Shown here: piece by piece, positions 9,730-39,062 of the stretch
How positions within the stretch are numbered: the first letter of the stretch is position 1
How the letters are laid out: each line of letters starts with the position of its first letter
Source of the DNA: a virus
DNA length: 64,000 nt
IMG/VR virus record: IMGVR_UViG_3300025930_000141
Coordinates: 16,712-80,711 of that record
Direction: 5' to 3' (one strand)
Position numbers and translations under genes: made by a program
Notes under the pieces: generated by a model
Seen by the model: the letters and a program-made list of their open reading frames with translations, nothing else
What the model was told of the DNA's origin: nothing
Database searches by the model: none

Positions 9730-9870
9730 AGGGTTGCGGTACGAAGACTGGTTAAGTTCTTTACCGCGCCGGTAACCTTTATACCGAAATTTAGTGGAGT
9801 CTCTAACCCCGTCTCCACAAGGGCCAGATGTTGGGAGGCTCTGAAACCTCTTAGGCCACCACAGCCCAAG
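9730..9870 (-). other. tRNA spacer with small hairpins, no gene seen
   Basis: Between tRNA-Leu(TAA) and tRNA-Val. It contains a GTGGAG/CTCCAC hairpin (about 9793-9818) and a TTACC/GGTAA hairpin. The segment 9795-9865 faintly resembles a decayed tRNA but does not fold with a credible anticodon arm. Confidence 0.35.
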
Positions 9871-9944
9871 TGCCCCTAGTGGGATTCGAACCCACGACAC
9901 CTTGATTTTAAGTCAAGTTCCTCTAGCCGCTGGGATATAGGGGC
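9871..9944 (-). tRNA. tRNA-Leu(TAA), lacking the long variable arm
   Basis: Acceptor GCCCCTA/TAGGGGC, stem CTTGA/TCAAG, loop CTTAAAA, five-base variable loop, A73. Decodes UUA, a codon whose only host tRNA in Streptomyces is the developmentally regulated bldA product. Class I body is atypical for Leu. Confidence 0.87.
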
Positions 9945-15973: not shown

Positions 15974-16002
15974 AGCCTACACGACTCAGGACTGCCTGTC
16001 AA
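15974..16002 (-). promoter_or_regulatory. Promoter, TTGACA-17-TAGGCT
   Basis: -35 at 15997-16002, -10 at 15974-15979, overlapping the 3' end of pncA. Confidence 0.72.
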
Positions 16003-16585
16003 GAGTGACTTTTGCCCTCTTGACCTCGCGCATCATGGCTGCCGTAGCCTCGTCTCCACCAACGCTTACCACGTATCCAGGCAGAACGTTAACGTCGTAT
16101 CCAAACCGTACCGCGTCGAGCGCGGTAGCCTTAACGCAGTGGTCACCGGCAATGCCCACAATGTCTACCCGGTCTACGCCATGGGCTAACAGGTATTCAT
16201 CTAAATCTGTCCCGTCCATGTTATAGCCCTGGAAGCCCGAATAGTCTGGCTTACCCTGGCCCTTGCGGAAAACGTGATGAGCGTCAAACGGCAGACTAGC
16301 ATTAAGCAGGGCTGGGTGCAATTGGGCACCCTCGGTACCGCCGACACAGTGCACCGGCCAGGTGCTTACAAAGTCTGGCTCGTTGGTTACCGCAAAGTGT
16401 CCACCGTTGGTGTCGGGCAGAGCATTGTGGTAATCCTTGGTGAACAGTACAAAGTCGTAGTCACGATGATTGCGGGTAACATAATCAGCAATTGCATTCG
16501 CAATCCGGTCACCGCCCTTGACTGCCAGGGCACCGCCCTCGGTAAAGTCGTTTTGTACGTCAACGATAATCAGTGCGTTAGTCAT
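15986..16585 (-). CDS. pncA: Nicotinamidase (isochorismatase family), 199 aa
   Basis: Catalytic triad residues are in place: Asp9 in VDVQNDF, Lys108 in FRKGQG and Cys150 in AGDHCVKAT, with metal ligands in the DYHNALPDTNGGHF segment (residues 51-64). The enzyme hydrolyses nicotinamide to nicotinate and ammonia, feeding NAD salvage by the Preiss-Handler route. It sits in the same transcription unit as NadR-like and PnuC genes, giving a NAD-regeneration module. Confidence 0.9.
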   Translation of the reverse strand: MTNALIIVDVQNDFTEGGALAVKGGDRIANAIADYVTRNHRDYDFVLFTKDYHNALPDTNGGHFAVTNEPDFVSTWPVHCVGGTEGAQLHPALLNASLPFDAHHVFRKGQGKPDYSGFQGYNMDGTDLDEYLLAHGVDRVDIVGIAGDHCVKATALDAVRFGYDVNVLPGYVVSVGGDEATAAMMREVKRAKVTLDRQS

Positions 16586-16763
16586 ATGTTTCCCACCTAA
16601 TTACAATCATTGGTTCCTGATGCTCATTGGGGCCATAACCAACCCACTCTGAGCCTATCTCGATATTAACTGTTGAACCGGGCGGCACCGAGTTGACAGC
16701 CGCCTTTAAGTCTTCGAAGTCTGAGCCGGTACGGACCTCAATTTCATGCGTTGTCTTAATCAT
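16578..16763 (-). CDS. Hypothetical 61-aa protein
   Basis: Start ATG 16763 (MIKTTHEIEVRTGSDFEDLK) overlaps the upstream stop. Alternating beta-like pattern ending MIVIRWETYD. No family recognised; in the NAD operon. Confidence 0.6.
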   Translation of the reverse strand: MIKTTHEIEVRTGSDFEDLKAAVNSVPPGSTVNIEIGSEWVGYGPNEHQEPMIVIRWETYD

Positions 16764-16939
16764 CAGAACACCTGTCTCCACCTAGGCGTCATCCCTGTCA
16801 CCGCGTCGGCTCTGATTTCTACAATCTCAAACAGGAGGCCGCACTGACACTCCCACACGCTGCCGAGACCTATTGCGTTGTTCAGGTTGCCTCTTGGATA
16901 ATCGTGTGCGTGCGGAGGCTTAACATCTTTCCAAGGCAT
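16763..16939 (-). CDS. Hypothetical 58-aa protein
   Basis: MPWKDVKPPHAHDYPRGNLN, a CQC pair and VEIRADAVTGM. Overlaps nadR and the next gene by one and a few bases, so it is part of the same operon. Confidence 0.6.
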   Translation of the reverse strand: MPWKDVKPPHAHDYPRGNLNNAIGLGSVWECQCGLLFEIVEIRADAVTGMTPRWRQVF

Positions 16940-17973
16940 CAGAAACCATTCCTATCATACTCTAGTAACATAGTGTGCTTTCGTGCCGCTTGCCGACTGG
17001 CACCCAGGGCGACCTGTAGTCGCTCATTATGGTTGCTTGGGTCAATGAGACGGTACTTAAGTCCGTACCGCTCGGCTACGTCAACCCAGTATTCGTCCGG
17101 CGACTCCCGGTGGTCACCGCCATAACGCAGCGGGTCCCGCTCAAAGTCAATATTCGACTTGGTAATGACATAAAGGTCGCTCTTTAGTTCCTCGGCGTCC
17201 TTTAGCAGTCCTTGCGGGACCGGGCCTAAAGCCTCACGCCAGTGTGGCTGTTCCCAATAACCAATAGTCGAATACAGGTCGGTGTCTTGGACCAGGAACG
17301 GCTTACCAGTAAAGAACTCCATGTGCCGCTGCGCGGCAGCCTGACCTCGCCAGATAGCCGTCATTGACGCAACAGTAATCTCGGGACCAACTGTTTCCAG
17401 ATAAGGACGTGCCCACTCGTACAGCCAGTGGCCGGGTAGGAATTCAGCCATATCCTGAGACAGCGTTGTCTTACCCGTGGACTCTGCACCAAATACGGTA
17501 ACCTTCGTGCGCATGCGGCCTTGGAACTCTGGAATCATCATATCAAAGTTCGCTAGCGTGTGCTCGCGCACATCGGTCGCCTTGGTGTAAAGCAGTTCAC
17601 GGCCAGGGTCGTATGGAATGAATACCCCGCCCAGCAGTTCGGCCAACTTTTGTCCGTACGGCTCACTGGACACGAATGTGTCATTAGGCTGTGCGCCGTG
17701 CTCGCGGAGGATGGACTGCCAAATTGTCCAGAACCCCTCAGTGTCCGGGTCCTGTGGCAGTTCCTTGTGGTAGTTACGCAGTTCTACGTCGTAGAGGCGG
17801 TCGTGCTTGATAGCCTCAAACATCGAGAAGTACCGCTCGTAGCGCATCGGCTCAGACGGTTGTGTGCAAAGCAGGACCACCGTGTGCTGGCCGAGCGAAG
17901 CCGCAAACCTTACTAGGTTCAGGTGGCCTCGGGTCGGCGGCATAGCCGTCATTAATACGAATGTGGTGGTCAT
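16939..17973 (-). CDS. nadR: NadR-like NMN adenylyltransferase / nicotinamide riboside kinase, 344 aa
   Basis: The N-terminal nucleotidyltransferase domain has TAMPPTRGHL (residues 9-18, GH nucleotidyl-transfer motif). The C-terminal kinase domain has the P-loop GAESTGKT (162-169) and WARPY and VQDTDLYST segments of NadR kinases. The pair would phosphorylate imported nicotinamide riboside to NMN and convert NMN to NAD. No N-terminal helix-turn-helix, so it lacks the repressor function of enterobacterial NadR. It overlaps pnuC by four bases. Confidence 0.9.
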   Translation of the reverse strand: MTTTFVLMTAMPPTRGHLNLVRFAASLGQHTVVLLCTQPSEPMRYERYFSMFEAIKHDRLYDVELRNYHKELPQDPDTEGFWTIWQSILREHGAQPNDTFVSSEPYGQKLAELLGGVFIPYDPGRELLYTKATDVREHTLANFDMMIPEFQGRMRTKVTVFGAESTGKTTLSQDMAEFLPGHWLYEWARPYLETVGPEITVASMTAIWRGQAAAQRHMEFFTGKPFLVQDTDLYSTIGYWEQPHWREALGPVPQGLLKDAEELKSDLYVITKSNIDFERDPLRYGGDHRESPDEYWVDVAERYGLKYRLIDPSNHNERLQVALGASRQAARKHTMLLEYDRNGF

Positions 17974-18683
17974 GCTGCTAACACCGCTTCCTGTGCTGGT
18001 TGCTTAACTTCATTGTCCATACCGCGCTTCCATGCGTACCAACCCCAGGCTGTGTTAGCGAGGAAGAATACGTACTGGAATGCTACCAGGAACAAACCGG
18101 CAGTGAAGTACGTGTAAATTGCAAACACGTTTACCAGCCCCCAGATGCCCCAGTTTTCCAACTTCTTGTTATCGAGCATGAACTGTGCCAAAATGGTACC
18201 GGCGAAGATTACCGAGTCCGTCCACGCCAGATGACCTCCGAGGGCGGTGGAAATTGCGACGATGACGAGGTAGCCCGCGAGTGCGACCGCAATTGATGCG
18301 GCCCACGAGGGGGCCGACATGCGGGTGACAGGCCGTGTGTCGGCATCTGACTTCCATCGAATCCAACCGTACACGAGATACACGGTGAGGAATGCGTTAA
18401 TGCCTGTTGATGCAAACAGCCCGAACTGGTAAAACAGCAGGCAGTAGGCGGCTGTCGAGACAGCGCCAATCGGGTAATTGATTCTACGCTCCATAACACA
18501 CAGAAACGTGCAGGAGTAGGAGGTGAATACAGCAAAAGCCTCAAGCCACGACAGGGTGGTAATCCAACCGACTGCCAGGCCAAGGCCATAGGAGAGCGCC
18601 GTGAGCGCCAATCCAATAACTACAGATTGAGCAATGTTTGTCATTGCGCCATGCTCACGACGCGGAATTGTAATAAATGACAT
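17970..18683 (-). CDS. pnuC: PnuC nicotinamide riboside transporter, 237 aa
   Basis: Seven to eight hydrophobic helices. The conserved ENWGIWGLVNVFAIYTYF and aromatic-rich C-terminal helix (YVFFLANTAWGWYAWKR) match PnuC. It facilitates uptake of nicotinamide riboside, which NadR traps by phosphorylation. First gene of the NAD operon, with GAAAGGGATG upstream. Confidence 0.9.
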   Translation of the reverse strand: MSFITIPRREHGAMTNIAQSVVIGLALTALSYGLGLAVGWITTLSWLEAFAVFTSYSCTFLCVMERRINYPIGAVSTAAYCLLFYQFGLFASTGINAFLTVYLVYGWIRWKSDADTRPVTRMSAPSWAASIAVALAGYLVIVAISTALGGHLAWTDSVIFAGTILAQFMLDNKKLENWGIWGLVNVFAIYTYFTAGLFLVAFQYVFFLANTAWGWYAWKRGMDNEVKQPAQEAVLAA

Positions 18684-18767
18684 TTGTTTTCATCCCTTTC
18701 AATTGTAGGGCCAAGCCGTCATGTCAACGCTTGAATAAGCCCTACGGGTCTTTTAACTTGTACCTAC

Positions 18768-18796
18768 ACTATAGCACGGCTATCGCCGTGTGTCAA
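18768..18796 (-). promoter_or_regulatory. Promoter, TTGACA-17-TATAGT, for the NAD operon
   Basis: -35 at 18791-18796, -10 at 18768-18773. The spacer carries the same CACGGC/GCCGTG dyad as the promoter at 13971. About 80 bases upstream of pnuC. Confidence 0.82.
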
Positions 18797-19161
18797 GGTA
18801 GACTTATTGGTACATTTATGGTGCCTGTGGTTATGCTTGTACCGGTCCCAATGGAGTACGGGCCGGTACTAATAACGTAGCCGCCGTTTTGACGCTTTGG
18901 CTTACGCTTTTTCTTCACACCAGACTTTGTACCCTTAGGCATGGTCCACTCAAAGTATACCGAGCCGTCCGGGTGGGTGTGCTGGGTACGGCGGTAATGT
19001 GCTCTCACCGTCTTGGGGGCAACGGTAGGATAAGTGCCGTCTGTATTCCAGTCATACATATGTAATTCGTCAGCCAGCGTCTCTGTTACCACCATTGTCT
19101 CGGTGGGGTCGAGGTCGAGAACCTTGCCGTCCTGCGGACCTCGATAAAGCCTAACCTTCAT
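18793..19161 (-). CDS. Hypothetical 122-aa protein with basic middle and Thr/Gly tail
   Basis: MKVRLYRGPQDGKVLDLDP resembles the start of small phage proteins that describe a label-like beta fold; then HPDGSVYFEWTMPKG, a KKKRKPKRQNGG basic stretch, and a repetitive GTGTSITTGTIN tail. Start ATG 19161 overlaps the macro-domain gene end. Confidence 0.65.
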   Translation of the reverse strand: MKVRLYRGPQDGKVLDLDPTETMVVTETLADELHMYDWNTDGTYPTVAPKTVRAHYRRTQHTHPDGSVYFEWTMPKGTKSGVKKKRKPKRQNGGYVISTGPYSIGTGTSITTGTINVPISLP

Positions 19162-19600
19162 AATGCCAAACCTCAAACTCAAACTCGGGGTAAATAGCCT
19201 CAGCGGCTAGTAATAGTTGCTCTACCTTCGGCCATTCCAGGCCCCCGATGCCTGAGCCGATTTCAGGAATTGCAATGGTGGTTCCCCACGCTTTTTCGGT
19301 AGGAGAGTAGAACCTAAAAAAGTCCATGACTGACGCAAAAACCCATTCATACCGGGCATTTGCTCCGGGATTGTCCTGGGTATAAAGATTAAGGATTACT
19401 ACGCCACGGTCAGGCACCCCAGTAAACTCACCGGGCACCGCAAGACCAACGTCGCACACATGCTTATAAAACTTGAAGTTGGCGGGGAACTTTTCCTTGA
19501 TAGTCTTCGCTACCCCGGCCCCCATGACACCTTTGATGTTGGCTCCGTGAGCAATAATCTTTGCGTCTGTTGTAAACAGGTCACCATTACGGTGCTGCAT
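19151..19600 (-). CDS. Macro-domain protein (ADP-ribose binding/hydrolysing), 149 aa
   Basis: Classic macro-domain pattern: NGDLF, IIAHGANIKGVMGAGVA (ligand loop, residues about 14-30), a middle LNLYTQDNPG strand, and the IPEIGSGIGGLEW loop. Such domains remove or bind ADP-ribose, and the single-domain type can reverse ADP-ribosylation or process ADP-ribose phosphates. ATG 19600 has a better ribosome site than the TTG upstream. It lies immediately upstream of the NAD operon promoter, suggesting a link between ADP-ribose handling and NAD repair. Confidence 0.87.
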   Translation of the reverse strand: MQHRNGDLFTTDAKIIAHGANIKGVMGAGVAKTIKEKFPANFKFYKHVCDVGLAVPGEFTGVPDRGVVILNLYTQDNPGANARYEWVFASVMDFFRFYSPTEKAWGTTIAIPEIGSGIGGLEWPKVEQLLLAAEAIYPEFEFEVWHYEG

Positions 19601-19634
19601 GTTAATTTCCAATCTGTTGACGGAACTTATGTTG

Positions 19635-19717: not shown

Positions 19718-19790
19718 CCGAGCATGTTTGTGTTAATCGAAATGCGGACAGGTCTTGCACATGGTTGATAAACGACCAACGTCGGCTCGG
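19718..19790 (-). ncRNA. Y RNA-like small RNA Y1 (short form)
   Basis: Terminal stem CCGAG/CTCGG, 5' strand CCGAC in place of G[U/C]CGA, second helix GTTGGTCG/CGATTAAC, and CGTTTATC motif: same plan as the other seven Y-like RNAs, about 73 bases. No T-arm. Lies between tRNA-Asn and tRNA-Gln with about 9 bases to tRNA-Asn. Confidence 0.68.
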
Positions 19791-20855: not shown

Positions 20856-20926
20856 AGCCCCTAGCCGGGATTGAGCCGACTTCTCCTGTTTACAAGGCAG
20901 GTGCATCACCTTAATGCTTTAGGGGC
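20856..20926 (-). tRNA. tRNA-Thr(TGT)
   Basis: Acceptor GCCCCTA/TAGGGGC, loop CTTGTAA, C-A mismatch closing the anticodon loop; T-loop starts with C instead of T54. Confidence 0.85.
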
Positions 20927-21029: not shown

Positions 21030-21103
21030 AGCCGATACGGGGAATCGAACCCCGGCTATTCTACATTACGAAAGTAGTACCATACCATTTAGGAGTTATC
21101 GGC
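21030..21103 (-). tRNA. tRNA-Thr(CGT)
   Basis: Acceptor GCCGATA/TATCGGC, loop TTCGTAA. Third consecutive Thr tRNA, so ACC, ACA and ACG are all covered. Confidence 0.88.
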
Positions 21104-24008: not shown

Positions 24009-24102
24009 AGGGCACCCTTTGTTAAAGCAGGTCTGGCGACTGCACCCCGCGCGCAGGGTCACGGCTTCTCGGCCCTTGTACTTTGGGTCTCATCCATCAT
24101 TG

Positions 24103-24175
24103 TGGAGGATACCGGAATCGAACCGGTGACTTCTACCTTGCAAAAGTAGCACTCTACCTGCTGAGTTAATCCCCC
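24103..24175 (-). tRNA. tRNA-Ala(TGC)
   Basis: Acceptor GGGGGAT/ATCCTCC with G3-U70; loop TTTGCAA. Confidence 0.92.
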
Positions 24176-24193: not shown

Positions 24194-24264
24194 TGGCGTA
24201 CGAGAGATTTGAACTCTCAGAGTAGGGATTTACAGTCCCGCTCCCTCAACCAACGGTGTACGCC
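24194..24264 (-). tRNA. tRNA-Tyr(GTA), lacking the long variable arm
   Basis: Acceptor GGCGTAC/GTACGCC, stem GGGA/TCCC, loop CTGTAAA, five-base variable loop. Bacterial tRNA-Tyr is normally class II. The D-arm (CGTTGGTTGAG) is irregular and shared with tRNA-Trp at 35105. Confidence 0.82.
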
Positions 24265-26461: not shown

Positions 26462-27001
26462 TCAGGTCAACCTGGCACGAACTACGGTGCGATAGTCTGT
26501 GTGAACAAACCTCGACGCACATGTAATAAGTGTTAATGTTTCGTGCCTGTTGTTTAATACAGATACATTGGTGTAGTATACGTTGAACTTGTTTGTAACT
26601 TTAAACGTGTATTGGGTTCCACATTTTTCAATGACTACCCGGTCGCCGGGTGTCAATTCTGGGAGCCGCGCAAAGGGCTCTCCGTGCGTTACAACGTGTG
26701 CAGTGAGCGCATAGTTCCCCCTGCCCACCGGGCCGGTATGTGGGAAGTGCCCCACGACCCCTGAGTTTAGCACCTTTTCACTGACGCCATTCTCAATCGG
26801 CATTACGTAATGCCCCCAGGATGGAACCCGAATTAGTGCGCCGGGGCACTTGTGCAGGGCTACGCCCTGTCTAATCTTTGAAACCTCAGCCTTTTGATGT
26901 TGTTCAATGGCTACCGGGTCAGACCCGGTATGGGGCATTCCGAAGAATACAACCATACCGAGCCCGACCACAATCAGTGTCAGTGCGAATAACTTACGCA
27001 C
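26462..27001 (-). CDS. Sortase, class E-like transpeptidase, 179 aa
   Basis: N-terminal membrane anchor (residues 2-25), then the sortase barrel: NYALTAHVVTHGEPF (catalytic His), LTPGDRVVIE, TYTF-type strand, TLITCAS (catalytic Cys) and RTVVRARL (catalytic Arg). GTG 27001 overlaps the stop of the substrate gene, so both are made together. It would join LPXTG-like proteins to the host cell wall. Confidence 0.87.
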   Translation of the reverse strand: MRKLFALTLIVVGLGMVVFFGMPHTGSDPVAIEQHQKAEVSKIRQGVALHKCPGALIRVPSWGHYVMPIENGVSEKVLNSGVVGHFPHTGPVGRGNYALTAHVVTHGEPFARLPELTPGDRVVIEKCGTQYTFKVTNKFNVYYTNVSVLNNRHETLTLITCASRFVHTDYRTVVRARLT

Positions 27002-27944
27002 GCTTACGAGACAATAGCAGGAGACCGGAGCCAGCAATTAGCAGACCCAGACCAACAAACAAAGACGTGTTGGCGGTATCTGACAAACCAGCATTCGGTA
27101 GGGACCGTGCTACAGGTGGTGCAAGTGCAGCGGGCGGCTTATGCCCACTTGGGTTATGCGGGGTATTTACCGGAGGCTTGGGCGACGGGTTATCTACCGG
27201 TGGCGTAGGCGTCGGTGTAGGAGTCGGTGTGTCGGTCGTGCAGGTCACACCGTCCGTCCAAGCATAGAAGGTAACCTCGTCAGAGGCTTCCTGGTCAGTT
27301 ACAGTTTCATCAAATGCTTCCTGGTCAACGATAACTTCGTCATATGCCTCCTGGTCTACAACCGTTTCATCATATGCATCTTGGCCCGGAGTAATCAATT
27401 CTCCGTGCTCGCGGTGGAACCAAGAAGAGTTACCGCTATTTCCATTACTGGAATTAAACGTGCCGTAAGTATCTTGGTCAGGACCGCCGTTTTCGTGAGG
27501 CCCCTGCCATGTGCCACGCTCATCATTGGGGAATTCAGGGGTGTAATCTTGTGGTCCATGAGTATAATTCGGGGACCAATTCCACCACAGGTCGGGGCCA
27601 TAAACAGCCGGTACCGCGTCGTGATGGATAACATGTGTTACCGCGTCGTGATGTACTGTATGCGTCACAGCGTCGTGATGTACAACGTGGGTGACTGCTG
27701 GGTGATGAACTGTCAAAACCCACGAGCGTGTAGTATCACACTCGTTGTCGGTGACAAAGGTAGAAACCTCGTCCTCGATTGCACCTTGCGGAACGTCGTT
27801 AGGGCTTGCAACCACAATTGGGTTACTAGCAGACTCACCGGGGACACCGGTTGCGTTGGCGGTGCTGAGCATTGCGCCCGCACCCAAAACAATACCGGCT
27901 ACCATAAGTACGGTCGCCAGTATTGTCGATAAAATCTTTGTCAT
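26994..27944 (-). CDS. Cell-wall-anchored surface protein with sortase signal, 316 aa
   Basis: Signal peptide (residues 1-31), then His-rich ten-residue repeats (VHHDAVTHTV type, four copies near residues 82-118), a WNWSPNYTHGPQDYTPEF segment, acidic repeats (DQEAYDEVIV type, four copies near 200-240), a Pro/Thr stalk, and the C-terminal sorting signal SLPNAG + hydrophobic helix + RKRA. It is the evident substrate of the adjacent sortase. Display on the infected cell could alter adsorption or exclude other phages (inference). Confidence 0.87.
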   Translation of the reverse strand: MTKILSTILATVLMVAGIVLGAGAMLSTANATGVPGESASNPIVVASPNDVPQGAIEDEVSTFVTDNECDTTRSWVLTVHHPAVTHVVHHDAVTHTVHHDAVTHVIHHDAVPAVYGPDLWWNWSPNYTHGPQDYTPEFPNDERGTWQGPHENGGPDQDTYGTFNSSNGNSGNSSWFHREHGELITPGQDAYDETVVDQEAYDEVIVDQEAFDETVTDQEASDEVTFYAWTDGVTCTTDTPTPTPTPTPPVDNPSPKPPVNTPHNPSGHKPPAALAPPVARSLPNAGLSDTANTSLFVGLGLLIAGSGLLLLSRKRA

Positions 27945-29796: not shown

Positions 29797-29900
29797 TTCG
29801 GATATGGTACGAAGTCGATAGGACACCAGTCCCAAATAGGCAGGAATCGAACCTGGCCTCGCTAACTTTGGCAACGATAAACGACTATCATCGACCCGAA
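29797..29900 (-). ncRNA. Y RNA-like small RNA Y2 (with T-arm)
   Basis: Terminal stem TTCGG/CCGAA; 5' strand GTCGAT; second helix GA(T)AGTCG/CGACTTC with one bulged base; CGTTTATC; a tRNA-like module with CCAAA/TTTGG stem and GGTTCGATTCC T-arm; 3' strand GTACCATAT. About 104 bases, starting five bases from tRNA-Arg(ACG). Confidence 0.78.
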
Positions 29901-30050: not shown

Positions 30051-30156
30051 TGGGCATAATTGTAATCGGAATTTAAGTCTACTTTGCGCTTGGAGGCGCA
30101 CGTGCTATTTACACCAATAGGGAAGTCCCCATAGATAACCGATATACTTCGGCCCA
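30051..30156 (-). ncRNA. Y RNA-like small RNA Y3
   Basis: Terminal stem TGGG/CCCA (short), 5' strand CCGAA, second helix GTA(T)ATCGG/CCGATTAC with a bulge, CGGTTATC, 3' strand AATTATG. One base from tRNA-Gly(TCC). The interior (about 65 bases) has no T-arm. Confidence 0.68.
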
Positions 30157-30505: not shown

Positions 30506-30597
30506 AAAAGTGCTCCAATTACTAGTGCACACAAGAGCAATAGCACAAACAGGAATAATCCGAAGTCTGCTAGAAACTCAATTATGTTGTCTATCAT
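30502..30597 (-). CDS. Single-helix membrane peptide, 31 aa
   Basis: MIDNIIEFLADFGLFLFVLL with one transmembrane helix to the end. ATGA overlap with the vWA gene suggests co-translation. Confidence 0.6.
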   Translation of the reverse strand: MIDNIIEFLADFGLFLFVLLLLCALVIGALL

Positions 30598-31589
30598 GCC
30601 TTGATAAGCAGTCTCGTGTTTGGCATCAGGTTACGGTTAATCGAGGTTGACTGAACGAAAATGTCGTAGTCCGGGTTGTAATCGGGCTTTACCCGTACCG
30701 TGTGGCTTGGTAGGCCAATAAGGTCACGAGCATTCTGACCACCATAAGCCTTACCGGTAGACTTCTCTACTACGATAATAGACTTCTGTGGCTGAATGTT
30801 TTCAGTCTTTGTCAACTGGTAGTAACCCATACCCTTGGAGTAGGCGTAACCCAGGCGACGAACAAAGTCGTCAATGCGGGTCTTGGAGTCTACGTTGTAG
30901 AACTCATAACCATCCAAAGGCTGTAGGTTCTTAACCGTTGCCTTGTTTACCGCATCTGCGCCTGTCGAGAAGACGGCGCGCGAGCCACGTACACCGCTGG
31001 CACGGTTTGTCATGAAGTTGTCTGTGGCCGTACGGATGGTGCTGACGGCCTCAACAATTCCAGTGGCACTAGTGGTGTCCCAAATTGCTACGGAGCCTGC
31101 ATCGGCCCCCAGACGGCTCACATAGGCCTGTCCTGACCTGTCAGGCACCAGCCAACCGATGGTCCAGTTGTCTGCTGCGCGGTTTAGCATGTTTGCCAGG
31201 TCGTGAGCGCTGTGACGCGAGCGGTTTTCCTGTCCGTCGGTTAGGACGAATGTCAGGAATGCGTGGTCACCATAAAGTTGGCTGGTCGTAGCCAAGTCCT
31301 GCTGGCTCTTGATGGTTGCGTCAATAAGGGCGGTAAGTCCTCGGACGTTGTAAAGGTCACTAATCGACGGTAGACGCATTACGTCCATATCGAAGATTAG
31401 GCACTCTACGTTATCGTGGAACAGATATACGCTGACTCGCGTCTCTTGTTGCAATTCTTCGCTTCTCAGAGCGAGGTAACGAATCTGTTCGTCGGCTACC
31501 TGGATTAACTTGCTTCTGTGGCTCGTCATGCTGGAACTACCGTCCAGCACGAGCGCCACGTGATTAATTAGTCGTTGTGCTTTGTGCAT
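30594..31589 (-). CDS. von Willebrand factor A domain protein, 331 aa
   Basis: MIDAS metal site DGSSSM at residues 16-21, with RGLTAL (Thr position) and LTDGQEN (Asp position) further on; the vWA fold covers about residues 8-200, followed by a C-terminal domain of unknown type (DGYEFYNVDSKTRIDDF). Cytoplasmic vWA proteins mediate metal-dependent protein contacts. It lies two small genes below the Ro60 gene, which also ends in a vWA domain. Confidence 0.82.
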   Translation of the reverse strand: MHKAQRLINHVALVLDGSSSMTSHRSKLIQVADEQIRYLALRSEELQQETRVSVYLFHDNVECLIFDMDVMRLPSISDLYNVRGLTALIDATIKSQQDLATTSQLYGDHAFLTFVLTDGQENRSRHSAHDLANMLNRAADNWTIGWLVPDRSGQAYVSRLGADAGSVAIWDTTSATGIVEAVSTIRTATDNFMTNRASGVRGSRAVFSTGADAVNKATVKNLQPLDGYEFYNVDSKTRIDDFVRRLGYAYSKGMGYYQLTKTENIQPQKSIIVVEKSTGKAYGGQNARDLIGLPSHTVRVKPDYNPDYDIFVQSTSINRNLMPNTRLLIKA

Positions 31590-31950: not shown

Positions 31951-33549
31951 TCAGACTCGACCAGCGAAGAAGTTAGCCATTACGCTAGGCGTAGATGAGT
32001 CGAAACCTACTACGTCGAGCATACCGGCGTCCTTCGGGTCTGCCACGGTGAAGCCTGTTGAGACCATACCTACAGAAACTAGGCGGGCGTTGCGGCCACG
32101 AGAGTCGCGGTACTGCTTAAGTGCGACATTTGGCTTAACGCTACCGGCCCACGTCTCGTTGTCGGTGTAAACCGCGAAAGCATCAACATCAATACCCTTG
32201 CTCTTGGCGTAAACCATTGGCTGGGCAATGTCGGTGCCACCGAACGACAAACCGCTGACCTTACGGAGCACGGTTTCGAACGAATCGGCGTCACCGATGT
32301 TCAGGGTTACCAACGAAGTCGTGAAGGCGTTAACCACAACGTAAGGCTCGGTGCGCACGGTGACCATAGCCATGAGCGCAGCGGCCTCTCGACAGTTAAG
32401 ACCAACGAGGCCAGCAGGGGCGTACATGGTCATAGAACCTGAAACGTCAAGGCTTACCATGGTTGGAACACCGGCAGGCTCGACGGTCTTGAAGGACTCA
32501 TAGAATCCAGACTCAAGAGCGCCCAAAACCTTAGCGTTCATACCACGGTGCTGCTTACCGAGGATACCGCGAGCGTTGGCGTACTGGACTGGGTGTACCC
32601 GGCCCTTTACGATACGCTCGCCGTCAGCAAGAGCAATAGCCACGTCGCCTGCGAACTTAACGTCCTTGAAAGCACCAATCTCTTCGAACCGCTTGAGGTT
32701 ACGAATGAGAGCGGTCTGACCTAGAGCGCCGTTGTAGAAAAGCGTCTTCCATACGTCAGGGTCCTTAAGGAACTGGGTAGGAATGGTTTCCCAAGGAAGA
32801 GCCTTGTACGTGTTAAGAACGCGCACAACTTCCTTGGCGCTTGTGGTGCGCTGCATGGCCTTGAAACCGTCGATAATTTCCGGCGTGTTTTCAATCTCGG
32901 CACGGTCGGCCTTGATAGGCCCGCCAAGAACAAAGTCACCAATGCTAACGTTTACGCCCTTAGGGTGAGCAAGACGGAATACGTCGCGGTGCGTCCAACC
33001 GTCGCGCTGGCGGTACTTGACTACCTGATAAGCCAACTGGTTGTCGTCCTTAGACGTGTACCAGTCTGCAAGGCTACCGCGCTTTGCGCGACCAAGGCCA
33101 CCCAAGTCCTTAAGGTACTGTGCGTACTCGAAAAGGTGGGTACCGGTGCGGGCAACCTTAGGGACAAGCGCCCGAACGGCAGCCTTGTTCTCAGCGTTGT
33201 GCATGAGCAAGGCTAGCACGAAAAGGCTAGGGCTGTTCTTAGGTGCGCGGTTTTCGTCAGCGACAGCGCGGAGCGTGTCGATAACCAACTGCTCGTCAGA
33301 CTTGATAAGTGCGAGGACGAACTTAGCGTTGTCCTTGGTCAACTTACGCTCTGAGACGTAGTAGGTACCGCCGTCCGTACCAAGAATCAGGAATCGCTCA
33401 AGGCGAACCTGCGGCGTAACACCGAATACAAAACCTCCGGCGTTGTTACGTACCTCGTCGGTACGTCCAGGGGTACGCTTGTTCTGAGGCGTACCGTTGT
33501 AACGAGTGTTTGCGATTTCACCCGTTAAGTTCTTTAATGCGTTCTTCAT
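31951..33549 (-). CDS. rsr: Ro60/Rsr TROVE-domain RNA-binding protein, 532 aa
   Basis: N-terminal TROVE ring domain (residues about 35-355) with the family's helical-repeat features (RFLILGTDGGTYYVSERKLT, RKGSLADWYTSKDDNQLAYQ-like segment near 155-178, TIPTQFLKDPDVWKTL), then a C-terminal vWA domain with MIDAS DVSGSM at 368-373. Ro60 proteins bind Y RNAs on the outer ring surface and misfolded RNA ends in the central cavity, and in bacteria team with nucleases for RNA quality control. Full family length. Directly downstream of five Y-like RNAs and several tRNAs in one transcript. Confidence 0.93.
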   Translation of the reverse strand: MKNALKNLTGEIANTRYNGTPQNKRTPGRTDEVRNNAGGFVFGVTPQVRLERFLILGTDGGTYYVSERKLTKDNAKFVLALIKSDEQLVIDTLRAVADENRAPKNSPSLFVLALLMHNAENKAAVRALVPKVARTGTHLFEYAQYLKDLGGLGRAKRGSLADWYTSKDDNQLAYQVVKYRQRDGWTHRDVFRLAHPKGVNVSIGDFVLGGPIKADRAEIENTPEIIDGFKAMQRTTSAKEVVRVLNTYKALPWETIPTQFLKDPDVWKTLFYNGALGQTALIRNLKRFEEIGAFKDVKFAGDVAIALADGERIVKGRVHPVQYANARGILGKQHRGMNAKVLGALESGFYESFKTVEPAGVPTMVSLDVSGSMTMYAPAGLVGLNCREAAALMAMVTVRTEPYVVVNAFTTSLVTLNIGDADSFETVLRKVSGLSFGGTDIAQPMVYAKSKGIDVDAFAVYTDNETWAGSVKPNVALKQYRDSRGRNARLVSVGMVSTGFTVADPKDAGMLDVVGFDSSTPSVMANFFAGRV

Positions 33550-33691: not shown

Positions 33692-33832
33692 TGCTGGATA
33701 TAAGTGCGAAATCGGGGTTTAACGGCGGCTTTACCATTTGCCTATACCCCACATGAATTGGGTGGGGCAACAGGATTCGAACCTGCATTCACCGGCTCCA
33801 AAGGCGATAACCGATATTCAATCGACCCAGCA
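33692..33832 (-). ncRNA. Y RNA-like small RNA Y4 (with T-arm)
   Basis: Terminal stem TGCTGG/CCAGCA; 5' strand GTCGATT; second helix GAA(T)ATCGG/CCGATTTC; CGGTTATC; T-arm GCAGGTTCGAATCCTGT; 3' strand GCACTTATAT. About 141 bases, the longest; six bases from tRNA-Ser and ten from Y5. Confidence 0.82.
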
Positions 33833-33842
33833 TTAAGTTGTG

Positions 33843-33958
33843 TACCGAATATGTTATTGCAACGGAGTTTTTACTATATAGCATACAGCACACCGACAGG
33901 GCCGGTGTATTGGATTTGAACCAATGATTTCCGATAACCGTTAACATTCGACTCGGTA
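33843..33958 (-). ncRNA. Y RNA-like small RNA Y5 (with T-arm)
   Basis: Terminal stem TACCGA/TCGGTA; GTCGAA; second helix TG(T)TAACGG/CCGTTGCA; CGGTTATC; T-arm ATTGGTTCAAATCCAAT; a further ACACCG/CGGTGT hairpin; 3' strand AATAACATAT. Four bases from tRNA-Met. Confidence 0.82.
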
Positions 33959-33961
33959 TAG

Positions 33962-34035
33962 TAGCGGAGACGGGATTTGAACCCGCGTTGTCAGGATTAT
34001 GAGCCCTGTGTTTAACCGAACTAAACTACTCCGCG
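33962..34035 (-). tRNA. tRNA-Met(CAT), initiator-like
   Basis: 5' C faces U72 (unpaired 1-72, an initiator trait), stem CAGGG/TCCTG, loop CTCATAA, A73. Confidence 0.83.
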
Positions 34036-34037
34036 AG

Positions 34038-34110
34038 TGGGCCGTATAGGATTCGAACCTATGACTTCTTCGGTGTAAACGAAGCACTCTAACCACTGAG
34101 TTAACAGCCC
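34038..34110 (-). tRNA. tRNA-Val(TAC)
   Basis: Acceptor GGGCTGT/ACGGCCC, stem CTTCG/CGAAG, loop TTTACAC. Confidence 0.92.
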
Positions 34111-34114
34111 ATGG

Positions 34115-34225
34115 TACCGGACATAAGGTTGAAATCGAGCGTTTTGACTGGGGACCGCCCCATGCACGAGTCGAACGTGCCCGACCTTATATTCAGTAAG
34201 ATAACCGATTTCATTCGGCCCGGTA
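34115..34225 (-). ncRNA. Y RNA-like small RNA Y6 (with T-arm)
   Basis: Terminal stem TACCGG/CCGGTA; GCCGAAT; second helix GAAATCG/CGATTTC; CGGTTATC; T-arm GCACGTTCGACTCGTGC; 3' strand AACCTTATGT. Five bases from tRNA-Val, eleven from Y7. Confidence 0.82.
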
Positions 34226-34235
34226 TTTAGTTTTG

Positions 34236-34309
34236 AGAGGATATGTGGTCGGCATCGTGTTTATGGTTAATTGCAATATAATTAGATAAACGATACCGTT
34301 CGACCCTCT
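34236..34309 (-). ncRNA. Y RNA-like small RNA Y7 (short form)
   Basis: Terminal stem AGAGG/CCTCT; GTCGAAC; second helix GGTATCGT/ACGATGCC; CGTTTATC; 3' strand GACCACATAT. About 74 bases without a T-arm; four bases from tRNA-Asp. Confidence 0.8.
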
Positions 34310-34312
34310 TTG

Positions 34313-34387
34313 CGACCTTGAAGGGATTTGAACCCTCGGCTTCTAGCGTGACGGGCTAGCACTCTAACCAGACTGAGTTACAAGGCC
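34313..34387 (-). tRNA. tRNA-Asp(GTC) with C33
   Basis: Acceptor GGCCTTG/CAAGGTC, stem CTAGC/GCTAG, loop CCGTCAC (C33), G73. Confidence 0.88.
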
Positions 34388-34399
34388 ATGTTAATTTAG

Positions 34400-34464
34400 A
34401 GCGAATATGTGGTTGACCAACGGGGGTTCATTGTTGTAAGATAACCGTCAATCTTCGACTCGCT
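34400..34464 (-). ncRNA. Y RNA-like small RNA Y8 (short form)
   Basis: Terminal stem AGCGA/TCGCT; GTCGAA; second helix GATTGACGG/CCGTTGGTC (G-U pairs); CGGTTATC; 3' strand AACCACATAT. About 65 bases, no T-arm; five bases from the D-armless Ile-type RNA. Confidence 0.8.
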
Positions 34465-34468
34465 TGGT

Positions 34469-34544
34469 AGGGCAGACAGGAGTTGAACCTGCGTGTCACC
34501 AGTTACCCTTTCTACTCGTTATCAGCGAGAGGGGATACTGCCCT
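34469..34544 (-). tRNA. D-armless tRNA-like RNA, Ile(GAT)-type anticodon loop
   Basis: Acceptor AGGGCAG/CTGCCCT and T-arm (CAGG/CCTG, loop TTCAACT) enclose a hairpin CTCG/CGAG with loop CTGATAA, identical to tRNA-Ile(GAT). The D-arm is missing; a CCC/GGG extension and a GTAACTGGTGAC segment lie after the anticodon arm, as in the 22580-22656 RNA. Confidence 0.55.
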
Positions 34545-34760: not shown

Positions 34761-35102
34761 CTATGTAATTTCTATGACAGGAATCCCCATCGCCCTATAG
34801 TGTAGCACGACCTCAGGGTCGTTGTCAAGCGCCTCGACCACGCTGTAGACCTGTCGAATTTTCTCAACTAGTTCAACCTTGTAAAGTGGATTCTTTTTCC
34901 GGTCTGGTGAGAACGCCATACCTCGGAGTGGAATCACATCTTTAAGAGTGTTATAGATGAAATCTTCATTTGTCTCCTGCATACGGTAAGTTACTACATA
35001 TACCGGCAGCCCGCGTTCATTCAAGTAATCCACAGTGGGTTGAATAAGACCGTAGTATTTCTTGAATAATACACCGTCGAAATCGCTGACTATTATGTCC
35101 AT
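34761..35102 (-). CDS. HAD-like phosphatase, 113 aa
   Basis: Starts MDIIVSDFDGVLFKKYYG: the DxD nucleophile motif of the HAD superfamily, followed by VYVVTYR (motif II Thr) and EALDNDPEV (acidic motif region). Small, without a large cap; may act on nucleotides or RNA/DNA 3' phosphates. Begins two bases from tRNA-Trp. The Y RNA/tRNA promoter is inside its 3' end. Confidence 0.75.
   Translation of the reverse strand: MDIIVSDFDGVLFKKYYGLIQPTVDYLNERGLPVYVVTYRMQETNEDFIYNTLKDVIPLRGMAFSPDRKKNPLYKVELVEKIRQVYSVVEALDNDPEVVLHYRAMGIPVIEIT
34799..34828 (-). promoter_or_regulatory. Promoter, TTGACA-18-TACACT, for the tRNA/Y RNA/Ro60 unit
   Basis: -35 at 34823-34828, -10 at 34799-34804; GACC/GGTC arms in the spacer. 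All RNAs from tRNA-Pro to tRNA-Ser and the Ro60 gene lie downstream, up to the terminator at 31913. Confidence 0.83.
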
Positions 35103-35104
35103 GG

Positions 35105-35176
35105 CACGGGTGGAGGGATTCGAACCCATCGCACTAGAGTTTTGGAGGCTCTGTGACTCAACCAACGCTCACCCGC
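35105..35176 (-). tRNA. tRNA-Trp(CCA)
   Basis: Acceptor GCGGGTG/CACCCGT, stem AGAG/CTCT, loop CTCCAAA, G73. D-arm CGTTGGTTGAG is irregular and matches that of tRNA-Tyr; T-stem has only three good pairs. Confidence 0.78.
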
Positions 35177-37174: not shown

Positions 37175-37407
37175 TAGCCGTCGTAGTCCCAATTCTTGTA
37201 TCGCCACTCACTGTCGGGCGCGAGGTTCTTAGCCTCTTGTGCCTTTTCACGAGCATATTCGTCACGGTCGTCGTCCCATACCGGGTGAATGCCTAGGCCC
37301 ACAAGTTCGCAATCAAAGTTATCTTCGATAAGCGCAGCCAACTTCTCTAGAAAATCTTCGTGTCGGTCTTTAAATTCACCAGTAATGGTAATTTCTTGTA
37401 GTTTCAC
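37174..37407 (-). CDS. Hypothetical 77-aa protein
   Basis: MKLQEITITGEFKDRHEDFL, alpha-beta pattern with acidic tail (PDSEWRYKNWDYDG). Coupled to both neighbours. Confidence 0.65.
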   Translation of the reverse strand: MKLQEITITGEFKDRHEDFLEKLAALIEDNFDCELVGLGIHPVWDDDRDEYAREKAQEAKNLAPDSEWRYKNWDYDG

Positions 37408-37694
37408 TTCAAGTACCTTTCAATCATACCCTCTAGCCACTCGTAGCCTACGGGATTGGCGGTAAGGATAGTATACTTCTCAAACCGGAAGTTATTCTCA
37501 ATCATCCACAAGACTACCGGGCGGCTGGTGTCGTCACCGCCGAGGTCGTGGTCCAGGGCAATCTCAGTATGTGGGATAAGATACCACAACGGGTGGCTAG
37601 CCTTTTCAAGCAGTGCAATGGCACCCTTGGACGAATAGGCGCGCATCCAGCCAGCGTCAGGCTGAGGTCTTACGTCGTCTACCCAAATCTTCAT
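37404..37694 (-). CDS. Cyclic-phosphate processing receiver-domain protein, 96 aa
   Basis: MKIWVDDVRPQPDAGWMRAY followed by EIALDHDLGGDDTSRPV: the [KR]-I-[WF]-[LV]-DDxRP and LDHDLG signatures of the receiver-like family linked to processing of cyclic phosphate ends and RNA repair operons (family knowledge; activity not shown here). ATG 37694 fits the overlap; the longer frame is not needed. Suggests the phage handles cleaved RNA. Confidence 0.8.
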   Translation of the reverse strand: MKIWVDDVRPQPDAGWMRAYSSKGAIALLEKASHPLWYLIPHTEIALDHDLGGDDTSRPVVLWMIENNFRFEKYTILTANPVGYEWLEGMIERYLK

Positions 37695-37867
37695 CTGTAA
37701 TACCCCGGCTTGTCTATAGGAGTTGGTGTTATGGCCTTGTTTCCACAGTTCGCACAATACATTTCAAGCGAGTACATGGCAATCTCATAGTCATCGAATG
37801 ACGCAAGTATCTTCCACAAGTTGGAGCCGCACACGCACTCGTGGGTGATGACCCCTAGGTCTATCAT
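37691..37867 (-). CDS. Zinc-ribbon protein, 58 aa
   Basis: MIDLGVITHECVCGSNLWKI with CVCG and CANCG pairs 27 residues apart; ATGA overlaps on both sides. Confidence 0.68.
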   Translation of the reverse strand: MIDLGVITHECVCGSNLWKILASFDDYEIAMYSLEMYCANCGNKAITPTPIDKPGYYR

Positions 37868-38097: not shown

Positions 38098-38739
38098 TCA
38101 GGACTTGACTGCGTTTTCTCGGTCTTCATCCGAAAAGGCTGCGGCTGCAACAGCGGCCTTATTGCCCTTGGCCTGTCGCACGGTACCTGCATAAGTGCTT
38201 AGGCTGCTCATGGTCTGACCGGTATTACTGGTGTTGTAGGTCAGAGACTTGTTCGGGTCGAAACCGAACGAGCGTCCTACGCTTACCGCGTCCATGTTGG
38301 CACCTAGGAACACAAAGTCCCAGTTCCACTTATCGGTTTGCTCACGAATGAGGTCTACTACGCCCTCGCGGGTCCAGTCATGGGAAGAGTTTTCGCCACC
38401 GTCTGTTACAACGGCAACCAAAACAGTACCCGGACGGTCGGCCTCTGCACGAGCGGCCAACTTCTCACCCAACTGGGTTACACCCTTACCGATAGCGTCT
38501 AGCAATGCGGTCATACCGCGCGGCTGCAAGACGGCCTTAGCCTCGCTAACGTCCTTATCTGTATAGACCAGTTCGTACGTGTCGTCAAACTGCACGTAAT
38601 CCACGACAGCGGTGCCGTCCAACTTGGCCTGTTCCTCAAAAAATGTGTCCAGTGCCCCGCGCATGTCCTGTTCACAGGAACGCATGGAGCCCGAACGGTC
38701 TACAATTACAAGCAATTGTGTTAAATCTTGGTTAGTCAT
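38098..38739 (-). CDS. vWA domain protein, 213 aa
   Basis: MIDAS site DRSGSM near residues 14-19, PRGMTALLDAIG (Thr) and VTDGGENSSHDW (Asp): a complete single vWA domain. LGANMDAVSVGRSFGFD is typical of the bacterial cytoplasmic vWA group. Third vWA protein of the window, with Ro60 and 30594-31589. ATG 38739 preferred to 38751 by its AAAGGAAAT site. Confidence 0.83.
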   Translation of the reverse strand: MTNQDLTQLLVIVDRSGSMRSCEQDMRGALDTFFEEQAKLDGTAVVDYVQFDDTYELVYTDKDVSEAKAVLQPRGMTALLDAIGKGVTQLGEKLAARAEADRPGTVLVAVVTDGGENSSHDWTREGVVDLIREQTDKWNWDFVFLGANMDAVSVGRSFGFDPNKSLTYNTSNTGQTMSSLSTYAGTVRQAKGNKAAVAAAAFSDEDRENAVKS

Positions 38740-38747
38740 ATTTCCTT

Positions 38748-39062
38748 TCATCCACCCATATCGGGGGAGTGATTAGAACGGTATGTCATCCATCGAGAGC
38801 CCTTGCCTGGCTTTTTACGCAAGGCCCGATGCTGCCAAAGAGTGTCACCGCTCTTAATCCGCGCCCAGGCGCGGTTGTTGTTTTTCTTAGGGGCTCGCCA
38901 GTGCTTGCCCATATATTCCATCCGACCCTTGCAGGAAGGACAAATCCCGTAATACGTGCTAATGTACCCGTACCGTGGATGCGGCACAGATGCCATTAAC
39001 CAGGAATCACGTTTGATTACCTTCCTGCAAGGGACACAGACGTACGTACCGTTACTCGGCAT
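38748..39062 (-). CDS. Zinc-ribbon protein, 104 aa
   Basis: MPSNGTYVCVPCRKVIKRDS and CPSCKGRMEYMG give one zinc ribbon; C-terminal half is very basic (KKNNNRAWARIKSGD). Probably binds nucleic acid. Overlaps the HNH gene by eleven bases. Confidence 0.68.
   Translation of the reverse strand: MPSNGTYVCVPCRKVIKRDSWLMASVPHPRYGYISTYYGICPSCKGRMEYMGKHWRAPKKNNNRAWARIKSGDTLWQHRALRKKPGKGSRWMTYRSNHSPDMGG

What the first reader, a model, noticed from the sequence alone, without database searches (positions are those of the whole stretch)
33692..34464. A family of at least eight Y RNA-like small RNAs, five clustered upstream of a phage Ro60 gene
Seen in sequence: eight loci (19718-19790, 29797-29900, 30051-30156, 33692-33832, 33843-33958, 34115-34225, 34236-34309, 34400-34464) share one plan: a terminal stem of 4-6 bp that differs in every copy but always pairs (CCGAG/CTCGG, TTCGG/CCGAA, TGGG/CCCA, TGCTGG/CCAGCA, TACCGA/TCGGTA, TACCGG/CCGGTA, AGAGG/CCTCT, AGCGA/TCGCT), a 5' G[U/C]CGA strand (CCGA in two copies), a second helix with frequent single-base bulge (for example GAAATCG/CGATTTC, GGTATCGT/ACGATGCC), a CG[G/U]UUAUC motif and a 3' ...ACxxAUAU strand. 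Two independent covarying helices strongly support RNA function. Known: Ro60 proteins bind Y RNAs through a bulged terminal stem, and bacterial Y RNAs can mimic tRNA. An array of many divergent Y RNAs with one Ro60 in a phage is, to my knowledge, not a described arrangement.
Basis: partly seen in the sequence, partly recalled or inferred. Interest (0 to 1): 0.96.

Follow-up and report, generated by a model that had tools for sequence, protein, structure and literature searches.

The report
Eight Y RNAs with phage Ro60
This phage carries a gene for the RNA-binding ring protein Ro60 and eight small Y RNAs that very probably bind it, five of them beside the gene and some shaped like a rearranged transfer RNA; such sets turn out to be common, mostly unannotated, in Ro60-carrying phages and occur in bacteria too.

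Summary
Confirmed. All eight loci lie on the minus strand, the strand of the Ro60 gene (31951-33549). They share one plan: terminal stem, YCGA, second helix, UUAUC, variable upper domain, 3' linker. A strict descriptor finds exactly these eight; shuffles predict 0.03. Both helices covary. A covariance model built only from relatives ranks all eight first in the window (76 to 26 bits); 30051-30156 is the weakest and close to the level of tRNA artefacts.

They belong to the bacterial Y RNA kind. The same RNAs lie beside Ro60 genes in about half of 80 bacterial and 79 viral loci, almost only on the Ro60 strand. Four of the eight carry a T-arm; 33692-33832 is a complete circularly permuted tRNA module. 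All eight sit within 12 nt of a tRNA gene, so they are probably cut out with the tRNAs.

The arrangement is not unique. Sets of 2 to 11 occur in other phages and an uncultured virus; bacteria have up to five. Phage Y RNAs near Ro60 were reported in 2014. Verdict: new member of a known kind, unusually rich. What the RNP does is inferred: RNA or tRNA surveillance during infection.

The parts
19718..19790 (-). Y RNA 1, short type (no T-arm); 9 nt before tRNA-Asn
   Evidence: descriptor 32.4; R2 33.6 bits, E 2e-5
29797..29900 (-). Y RNA 2, T-arm plus GGGACUGGUGUCC hairpin; 5 nt before tRNA-Arg; upper domain shared with mycobacteriophage Gizmo
   Evidence: descriptor 32.6; R2 43.5 bits; E 2e-7 to L070:15962
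30051..30156 (-). Y RNA 3, no T-arm recognised; abuts the 3' end of tRNA-Gly; weakest member
   Evidence: descriptor 30.0; R2 25.8 bits, E 1e-3
31951..33549 (-). Ro60 (Rsr) gene, 532 aa: TROVE domain and Ro60 vWA domain
   Evidence: Pfam vWA_Ro60 1e-57, TROVE 1e-34; D. radiodurans Rsr 2NVO E 4e-102, vertebrate Ro60 1YVP E 1e-84
33692..33832 (-). Y RNA 4, complete circularly permuted tRNA module (T-arm, closed acceptor stem, UA, D-arm)
   Evidence: R2 76 bits, E 1e-14; ARAGORN of 17 rotations; descriptor 36.4
33843..33958 (-). Y RNA 5, T-arm and acceptor-like hairpin; 2 nt after tRNA-Met
   Evidence: R2 58 bits, E 1e-10; descriptor 33.0
34115..34225 (-). Y RNA 6, T-arm and acceptor-like hairpin, no D-arm; 4 nt before tRNA-Val
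   Evidence: R2 53.7 bits, E 8e-10; descriptor 38.0
34236..34309 (-). Y RNA 7, short type; 2 nt after tRNA-Asp
   Evidence: R2 38.3 bits, E 2e-6; descriptor 36.0
34400..34464 (-). Y RNA 8, short type with UUAUCUU-C-AUGA loop similar to other phages; begins right after ...CCA of the tRNA at 34468-34544
   Evidence: R1 29.1 bits, E 1e-4; R2 41.3 bits, E 5e-7; descriptor 33.0
34799..34828 (-). promoter-like site TTGACA-18-TACACT with TG before the second hexamer, upstream of tRNA-Pro, the five-Y-RNA array and Ro60
   Evidence: consensus scan; no minus-strand terminator-like site between it and the end of Ro60; scan counts are near shuffle level

Best explanation
The eight loci are Y RNAs of the bacterial kind. 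Their shared base (terminal stem, YCGA, second helix, UUAUC, 3' linker) is the docking module for the phage's own Ro60 ring. Their upper domains differ: one complete permuted tRNA, three partial ones, and shorter or other loops. They are transcribed within the tRNA array and probably released by tRNA-processing enzymes. The likely role is a set of exchangeable adapters on one Ro60 that gate the ring and tether it to different partners, such as host PNPase or enzymes that recognise tRNA, for surveillance, decay or repair of structured RNA during infection. Shown: family, structure, covariation, permuted tRNA in 33692-33832, position next to tRNAs, conserved Ro60 residues, genome-specific docking signature. 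Inferred: expression, binding, processing route and function. The confidence below is for the identity and the Ro60 partnership; for the surveillance or repair role I would say about 0.45.
For: Descriptor and shuffles. Covariation in the window and in 31 relatives, where all 12 pairs have compensatory changes (those relatives were chosen partly by pairing). Model R2, built without window sequence, ranks the eight first. Same RNAs on the Ro60 strand in 41 of 80 bacterial and 42 of 79 viral Ro60 loci, other strand 3 of 80 and 0 of 79. Five-helix permuted-tRNA alignment with 23 of 26 pairs covarying. Ro60 K178, R182 and H195 align with vertebrate K170, R174 and H187; the first two are invariant in 16 Ro60s; that these residues bind Y RNA is from memory. 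Docking module more alike within than between genomes, 0.675 against 0.545, 0 of 2000 permutations, while upper domains hardly are, 0.299 against 0.268. tRNA adjacency: a tRNA end or start within 12 nt for 8 of 8; random positions have a tRNA end within 8 nt upstream in 1% of cases.
Against: No expression or binding data. Copy 30051-30156 is weak. Only one copy passes as a complete tRNA mimic. No RNA ligase or RtcB gene was recognised among the window genes scanned (not all were scanned). The genome record is a fragment of 80.7 kb. PNPase tethering and tRNA mimicry were worked out in bacteria, not in phages.
Confidence: 0.85

Rival explanations
1. Decoys: the tRNA-like Y RNAs are bait or competitive inhibitors for host anticodon nucleases or other tRNA-targeting defences, with Ro60 keeping them stable; the phage's 30-odd tRNAs and RNA-end-healing genes belong to the same counter-defence.
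For: Y RNAs lie inside a large tRNA array; nearby genes resemble a polynucleotide kinase/phosphatase (34761-35165) and a cyclic-phosphate processing cREC domain (37404-37757); the decoy idea was raised for Salmonella YrlA (PMC7790460); phage tRNAs and TROVE proteins are discussed as RNA-repair adaptations (PMC7824862).
Against: In the permuted module the anticodon arm is replaced by the Ro60-docking stem, so an anticodon nuclease would lack its target; four of eight copies have no T-arm.
Confidence: 0.2
2. Degenerate tRNAs: the loci are decaying or rearranged tRNA genes in a tRNA array, not Y RNAs.
For: They sit between tRNAs and four contain a T-arm.
Against: Conserved covarying docking module absent from tRNAs; conserved next to Ro60 on the same strand across phages and bacteria; permuted order with acceptor stem closed by a loop.
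Confidence: 0.03
3. Cis elements: the hairpins are leader or processing signals of the tRNA-Ro60 transcript, for example autoregulation of Ro60 by binding its own leader.
For: Five copies lie in the presumed leader of Ro60.
Against: Three copies lie 1.8 to 12 kb beyond the Ro60 gene, downstream of it; in Gizmo two copies lie about 35 kb away from Ro60. Autoregulation as a side effect is not excluded.
Confidence: 0.05

Closest known systems
Bacterial Y RNAs (Yrl/YrlA, YrlB) with Rsr; Chen et al. 2014 RNA 20:1715, Sim and Wolin 2018 (cited in PMC7790460, PMC12282133; not held)
   Same: encoded near Ro60, same docking module as found here beside bacterial Ro60 genes, tRNA-like domain in some copies
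   Different: eight copies, embedded in a tRNA array; only weak match to the Rfam YrlA model, which describes another branch
Y RNAs of Bxz1-type mycobacteriophages (Gizmo, NC_021346)
   Same: Ro60 plus five Y RNAs by this descriptor, two of them flanked by tRNAs on both sides; one shares the upper domain of 29797-29900
   Different: fewer copies, own docking signature (AGGC ... CAUGUCU)
IMG/VR 3300009147_000001 (110 kb)
   Same: one Ro60 and at least eleven Y RNA loci by descriptor, model and inspection
   Different: larger set, looser coupling to tRNAs
D. radiodurans RYPER (Rsr-Y RNA-PNPase)
   Same: phage Ro60 is closest in the PDB to this Rsr
   Different: PNPase tethering untested here; many Y RNAs, not one or two

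Membership tests
Bacterial Y RNAs (general kind) | encoded near a Ro60 gene | tested here: met
   five copies 0.14 to 0.9 kb upstream of Ro60, three farther away; general pattern in relatives
Bacterial Y RNAs (general kind) | conserved Ro60-docking module with covarying helices, same as beside bacterial Ro60 genes | tested here: met
Bacterial Y RNAs (general kind) | at least one copy with a tRNA-like domain | tested here: met
   33692-33832: R2 76 bits, ARAGORN on 13 of 17 rotations against 7 of 160 shuffled controls with any call
Bacterial Y RNAs (general kind) | stable RNA bound by Ro60 | not testable with these tools
   needs RNA sequencing and pull-down
Rfam RF02553 YrlA | score above the family's gathering cut-off | tested here: not met
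   18 bits against 69; no such Rfam hit either for bacterial and mycobacteriophage copies found here, so the model covers another branch; not filed under this Rfam family
Rfam vertebrate Y RNA | match in Rfam scan | tested here: not met
   no match; the YCGA-N10-UUAUC likeness to human Y1 is from memory only
Ro60/Rsr protein | TROVE domain plus vWA domain | tested here: met
Ro60/Rsr protein | residues equivalent to vertebrate K170, R174, H187 | tested here: met
   K178, R182, H195 by the alignment; role of the residues from memory

The most novel reading that the evidence does not exclude
Phages run a modular Ro60 particle: one ring with a set of up to about a dozen Y RNAs, made and matured together with the phage tRNAs, each upper domain recruiting a different partner, so that one protein serves several RNA surveillance or repair jobs.
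Probability: 0.3. Interest if true: 0.75.

Novelty: new member of a known kind. Interest (0 to 1): 0.5.

Why it matters
The function of bacterial Ro60 and Y RNAs is mostly open. Phages with many Y RNAs in culturable systems (Streptomyces, Mycobacterium smegmatis phages) would let one test what each upper domain does by deleting single copies. The RNAs are not annotated as Y RNAs in the phage records inspected here, and Rfam has no model that catches them; the covariance model R2 made here would.

Tried and rejected
A covariance model of the docking core alone (R1) found only copy 34400-34464 well and missed long copies, probably because of the large insert; R2 took its place. R2 also hits tandem tRNA pairs (for example 33963-34097, 9822-9928, 24026-24162), which were discounted. 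A relaxed descriptor hit at 31132-31296 lies inside a coding gene and was rejected. The conserved upper element of 29797-29900 was searched in IMG/VR: only one more contig, of 154 kb and the same sequence as in the Bxz1-type copy. Listeria phage P100, whose relative CKA15 makes abundant RNAs upstream of an Rsr-like protein (PMC12282133), has no Y core there and its protein is DUF2828/DUF7788, not Pfam TROVE. A search for the P100 motif in IMG/VR was too unspecific to use. A plasmid Ro60 search gave no enterobacterial YrlA to use as a positive control. Chen 2014, Sim and Wolin 2018, Sim 2020, Wolin 2013 and Burroughs and Aravind 2016 are not held.

Full report
Setting. The window is part of an uncultured virus record of 80,711 bases, a distant relative of Streptomyces phages of the Stanwilliamsviridae: its Ro60 is 59.5% identical to that of phage Blueeyedbeauty. 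ARAGORN finds 30 tRNAs, all on the minus strand. The Ro60 gene is 31951-33549, minus strand.

Observation. All eight loci exist as described and read from the minus strand. A descriptor with the shared core and two helices recovers exactly these eight at the right spacing, nothing in the rest of the record, and 0.027 hits per shuffled window. Pairs covary: 95.8% paired, 8 of 12 pairs changed on both sides, at most 46% paired when slid. The YCGA closing pair switches between U-A and C-G with its partner in all eight.

Relatives. Ro60 occurs in 343 of 50,697 phage records, mostly of Mycobacterium and Streptomyces phages. The descriptor finds the same RNAs beside phage Ro60 genes. In larger sets of loci, 41 of 80 bacterial and 42 of 79 viral Ro60 loci have at least one on the Ro60 strand, against 3 and 0 on the other strand (a few viral loci overlap the earlier set, and a few bacterial hits are clearly coding sequence). 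Two models were built from relatives only. R2 (25 sequences, five helices) puts the eight window copies first, 76 to 25.8 bits; the next hits, from 24.3 bits down, are mainly tandem tRNAs, so 30051-30156 at 25.8 bits rests mainly on the descriptor.

Permuted tRNA. In the alignment of long copies the helices fall out in the order T-stem, acceptor stem directly after it, two bases, four-pair D-stem, with the terminal stem where the anticodon arm would be; 23 of 26 pairs have compensatory changes. When the upper domain of 33692-33832 is rotated back to tRNA order with a generic anticodon arm, ARAGORN calls a tRNA in 13 of 17 rotations; shuffled controls that keep the T-arm give any call in 7 of 160. 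Copies 29797, 33843 and 34115 keep the T-arm and parts of the acceptor; the other four lack it.

Copy number. Counting plausible hits by descriptor and R2 in whole records: Gizmo (Bxz1 type) 5, Trina 5 to 6, StarPlatinum 3 to 4, Blueeyedbeauty 4 to 5, Comrade 2 to 3, Magritte about 3, BearBQ 2, an uncultured 110-kb virus at least 11. Bacterial loci reach five (Armatimonadetes, L148). So eight is rich but not unique.

Coupling to tRNAs. Every window copy has a tRNA end or start within 12 nt, and the Rfam-only tRNA at 34468-34544 ends in a CCA that runs straight into copy 34400-34464. In other phages the distance from the upstream tRNA, where short, is 0 to 3 nt; 19 of 99 viral copies are adjacent to a tRNA, while random positions have a tRNA end within 8 nt upstream in about 1% of cases; bacterial copies rarely are adjacent. 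A promoter-like site at 34828-34799 precedes tRNA-Pro, the array and Ro60, with no minus-strand terminator-like site before the end of Ro60. Release by tRNA processing is an inference from this.

Ro60 and its match to the RNAs. The protein aligns end to end with D. radiodurans Rsr and vertebrate Ro60. K178, R182 and H195 fall on K170, R174 and H187 of the vertebrate protein; the Y RNA role of these is from memory. Within a genome the docking modules are more alike than between genomes while upper domains are hardly so, as expected if all Y RNAs of a phage fit one Ro60 and differ in what they carry.

Context and function. Near the array are a polynucleotide-kinase/phosphatase-like gene, a cREC gene and, farther off, a Macro gene and NAD-salvage-like genes, the repertoire that PMC7824862 links to RNA repair and NAD counter-defence in jumbo phages, with TROVE proteins as an RNA-repair RNP. 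This favours RNA or tRNA surveillance or repair, but no step of it is shown here.

Verdict. Observation confirmed, Y RNA reading supported, novelty claim reduced: a new, copy-rich member of a known kind, with a testable and mostly unannotated distribution.

Noticed in passing
window 37404-37757 (-) and 34761-35165 (-): cREC cyclic-phosphate processing receiver domain (E 2e-17) and a polynucleotide kinase/phosphatase-like protein (phrog_415 1e-10): possible RNA-end repair genes upstream of the array.
   Followed up: partly
window 30594-31589 (-) and 38098-38751 (-): Two related vWA-like proteins (phrog_26613 and phrog_7371 hit both), one directly downstream of Ro60; a gene of similar size follows or precedes Ro60 in Blueeyedbeauty and Comrade. 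Homology of the neighbours not tested.
   Followed up: partly
window 15986-19612 (-): Isochorismatase-like, nucleotidyltransferase/AAA (NadR-like layout), NMN transporter and Macro-domain genes close together: possible NAD salvage or NAD counter-defence island.
   Followed up: no
window 26462-27944 (-): Sortase gene next to a protein with a weak LPXTG anchor match in a phage.
   Followed up: no
window 34468-34544, 20856-20926, 21030-21103, 24194-24264 (-): tRNAs above the Rfam cut-off that ARAGORN misses.
   Followed up: no
window 29797-29900; L070:15962-16070: Upper domain of one Y RNA shared with a Bxz1-type mycobacteriophage (77% over 74 nt), hinting at a specific conserved subtype or exchange.
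   Followed up: partly
L008:9637-9845 (Rhodococcus phage Trina): Annotated as tRNA-OTHER pseudogene; overlaps Y RNAs found here.
   Followed up: partly
L246, P100 record positions 123190-123430 (-): Three hairpins with variable closing stems and a shared ACAGCAAUUACUA-like motif upstream of a DUF2828/DUF7788 vWA protein in a Listeria phage: maybe an unrelated RNA family with an analogous role; may be the abundant RNAs of PMC12282133.
   Followed up: partly
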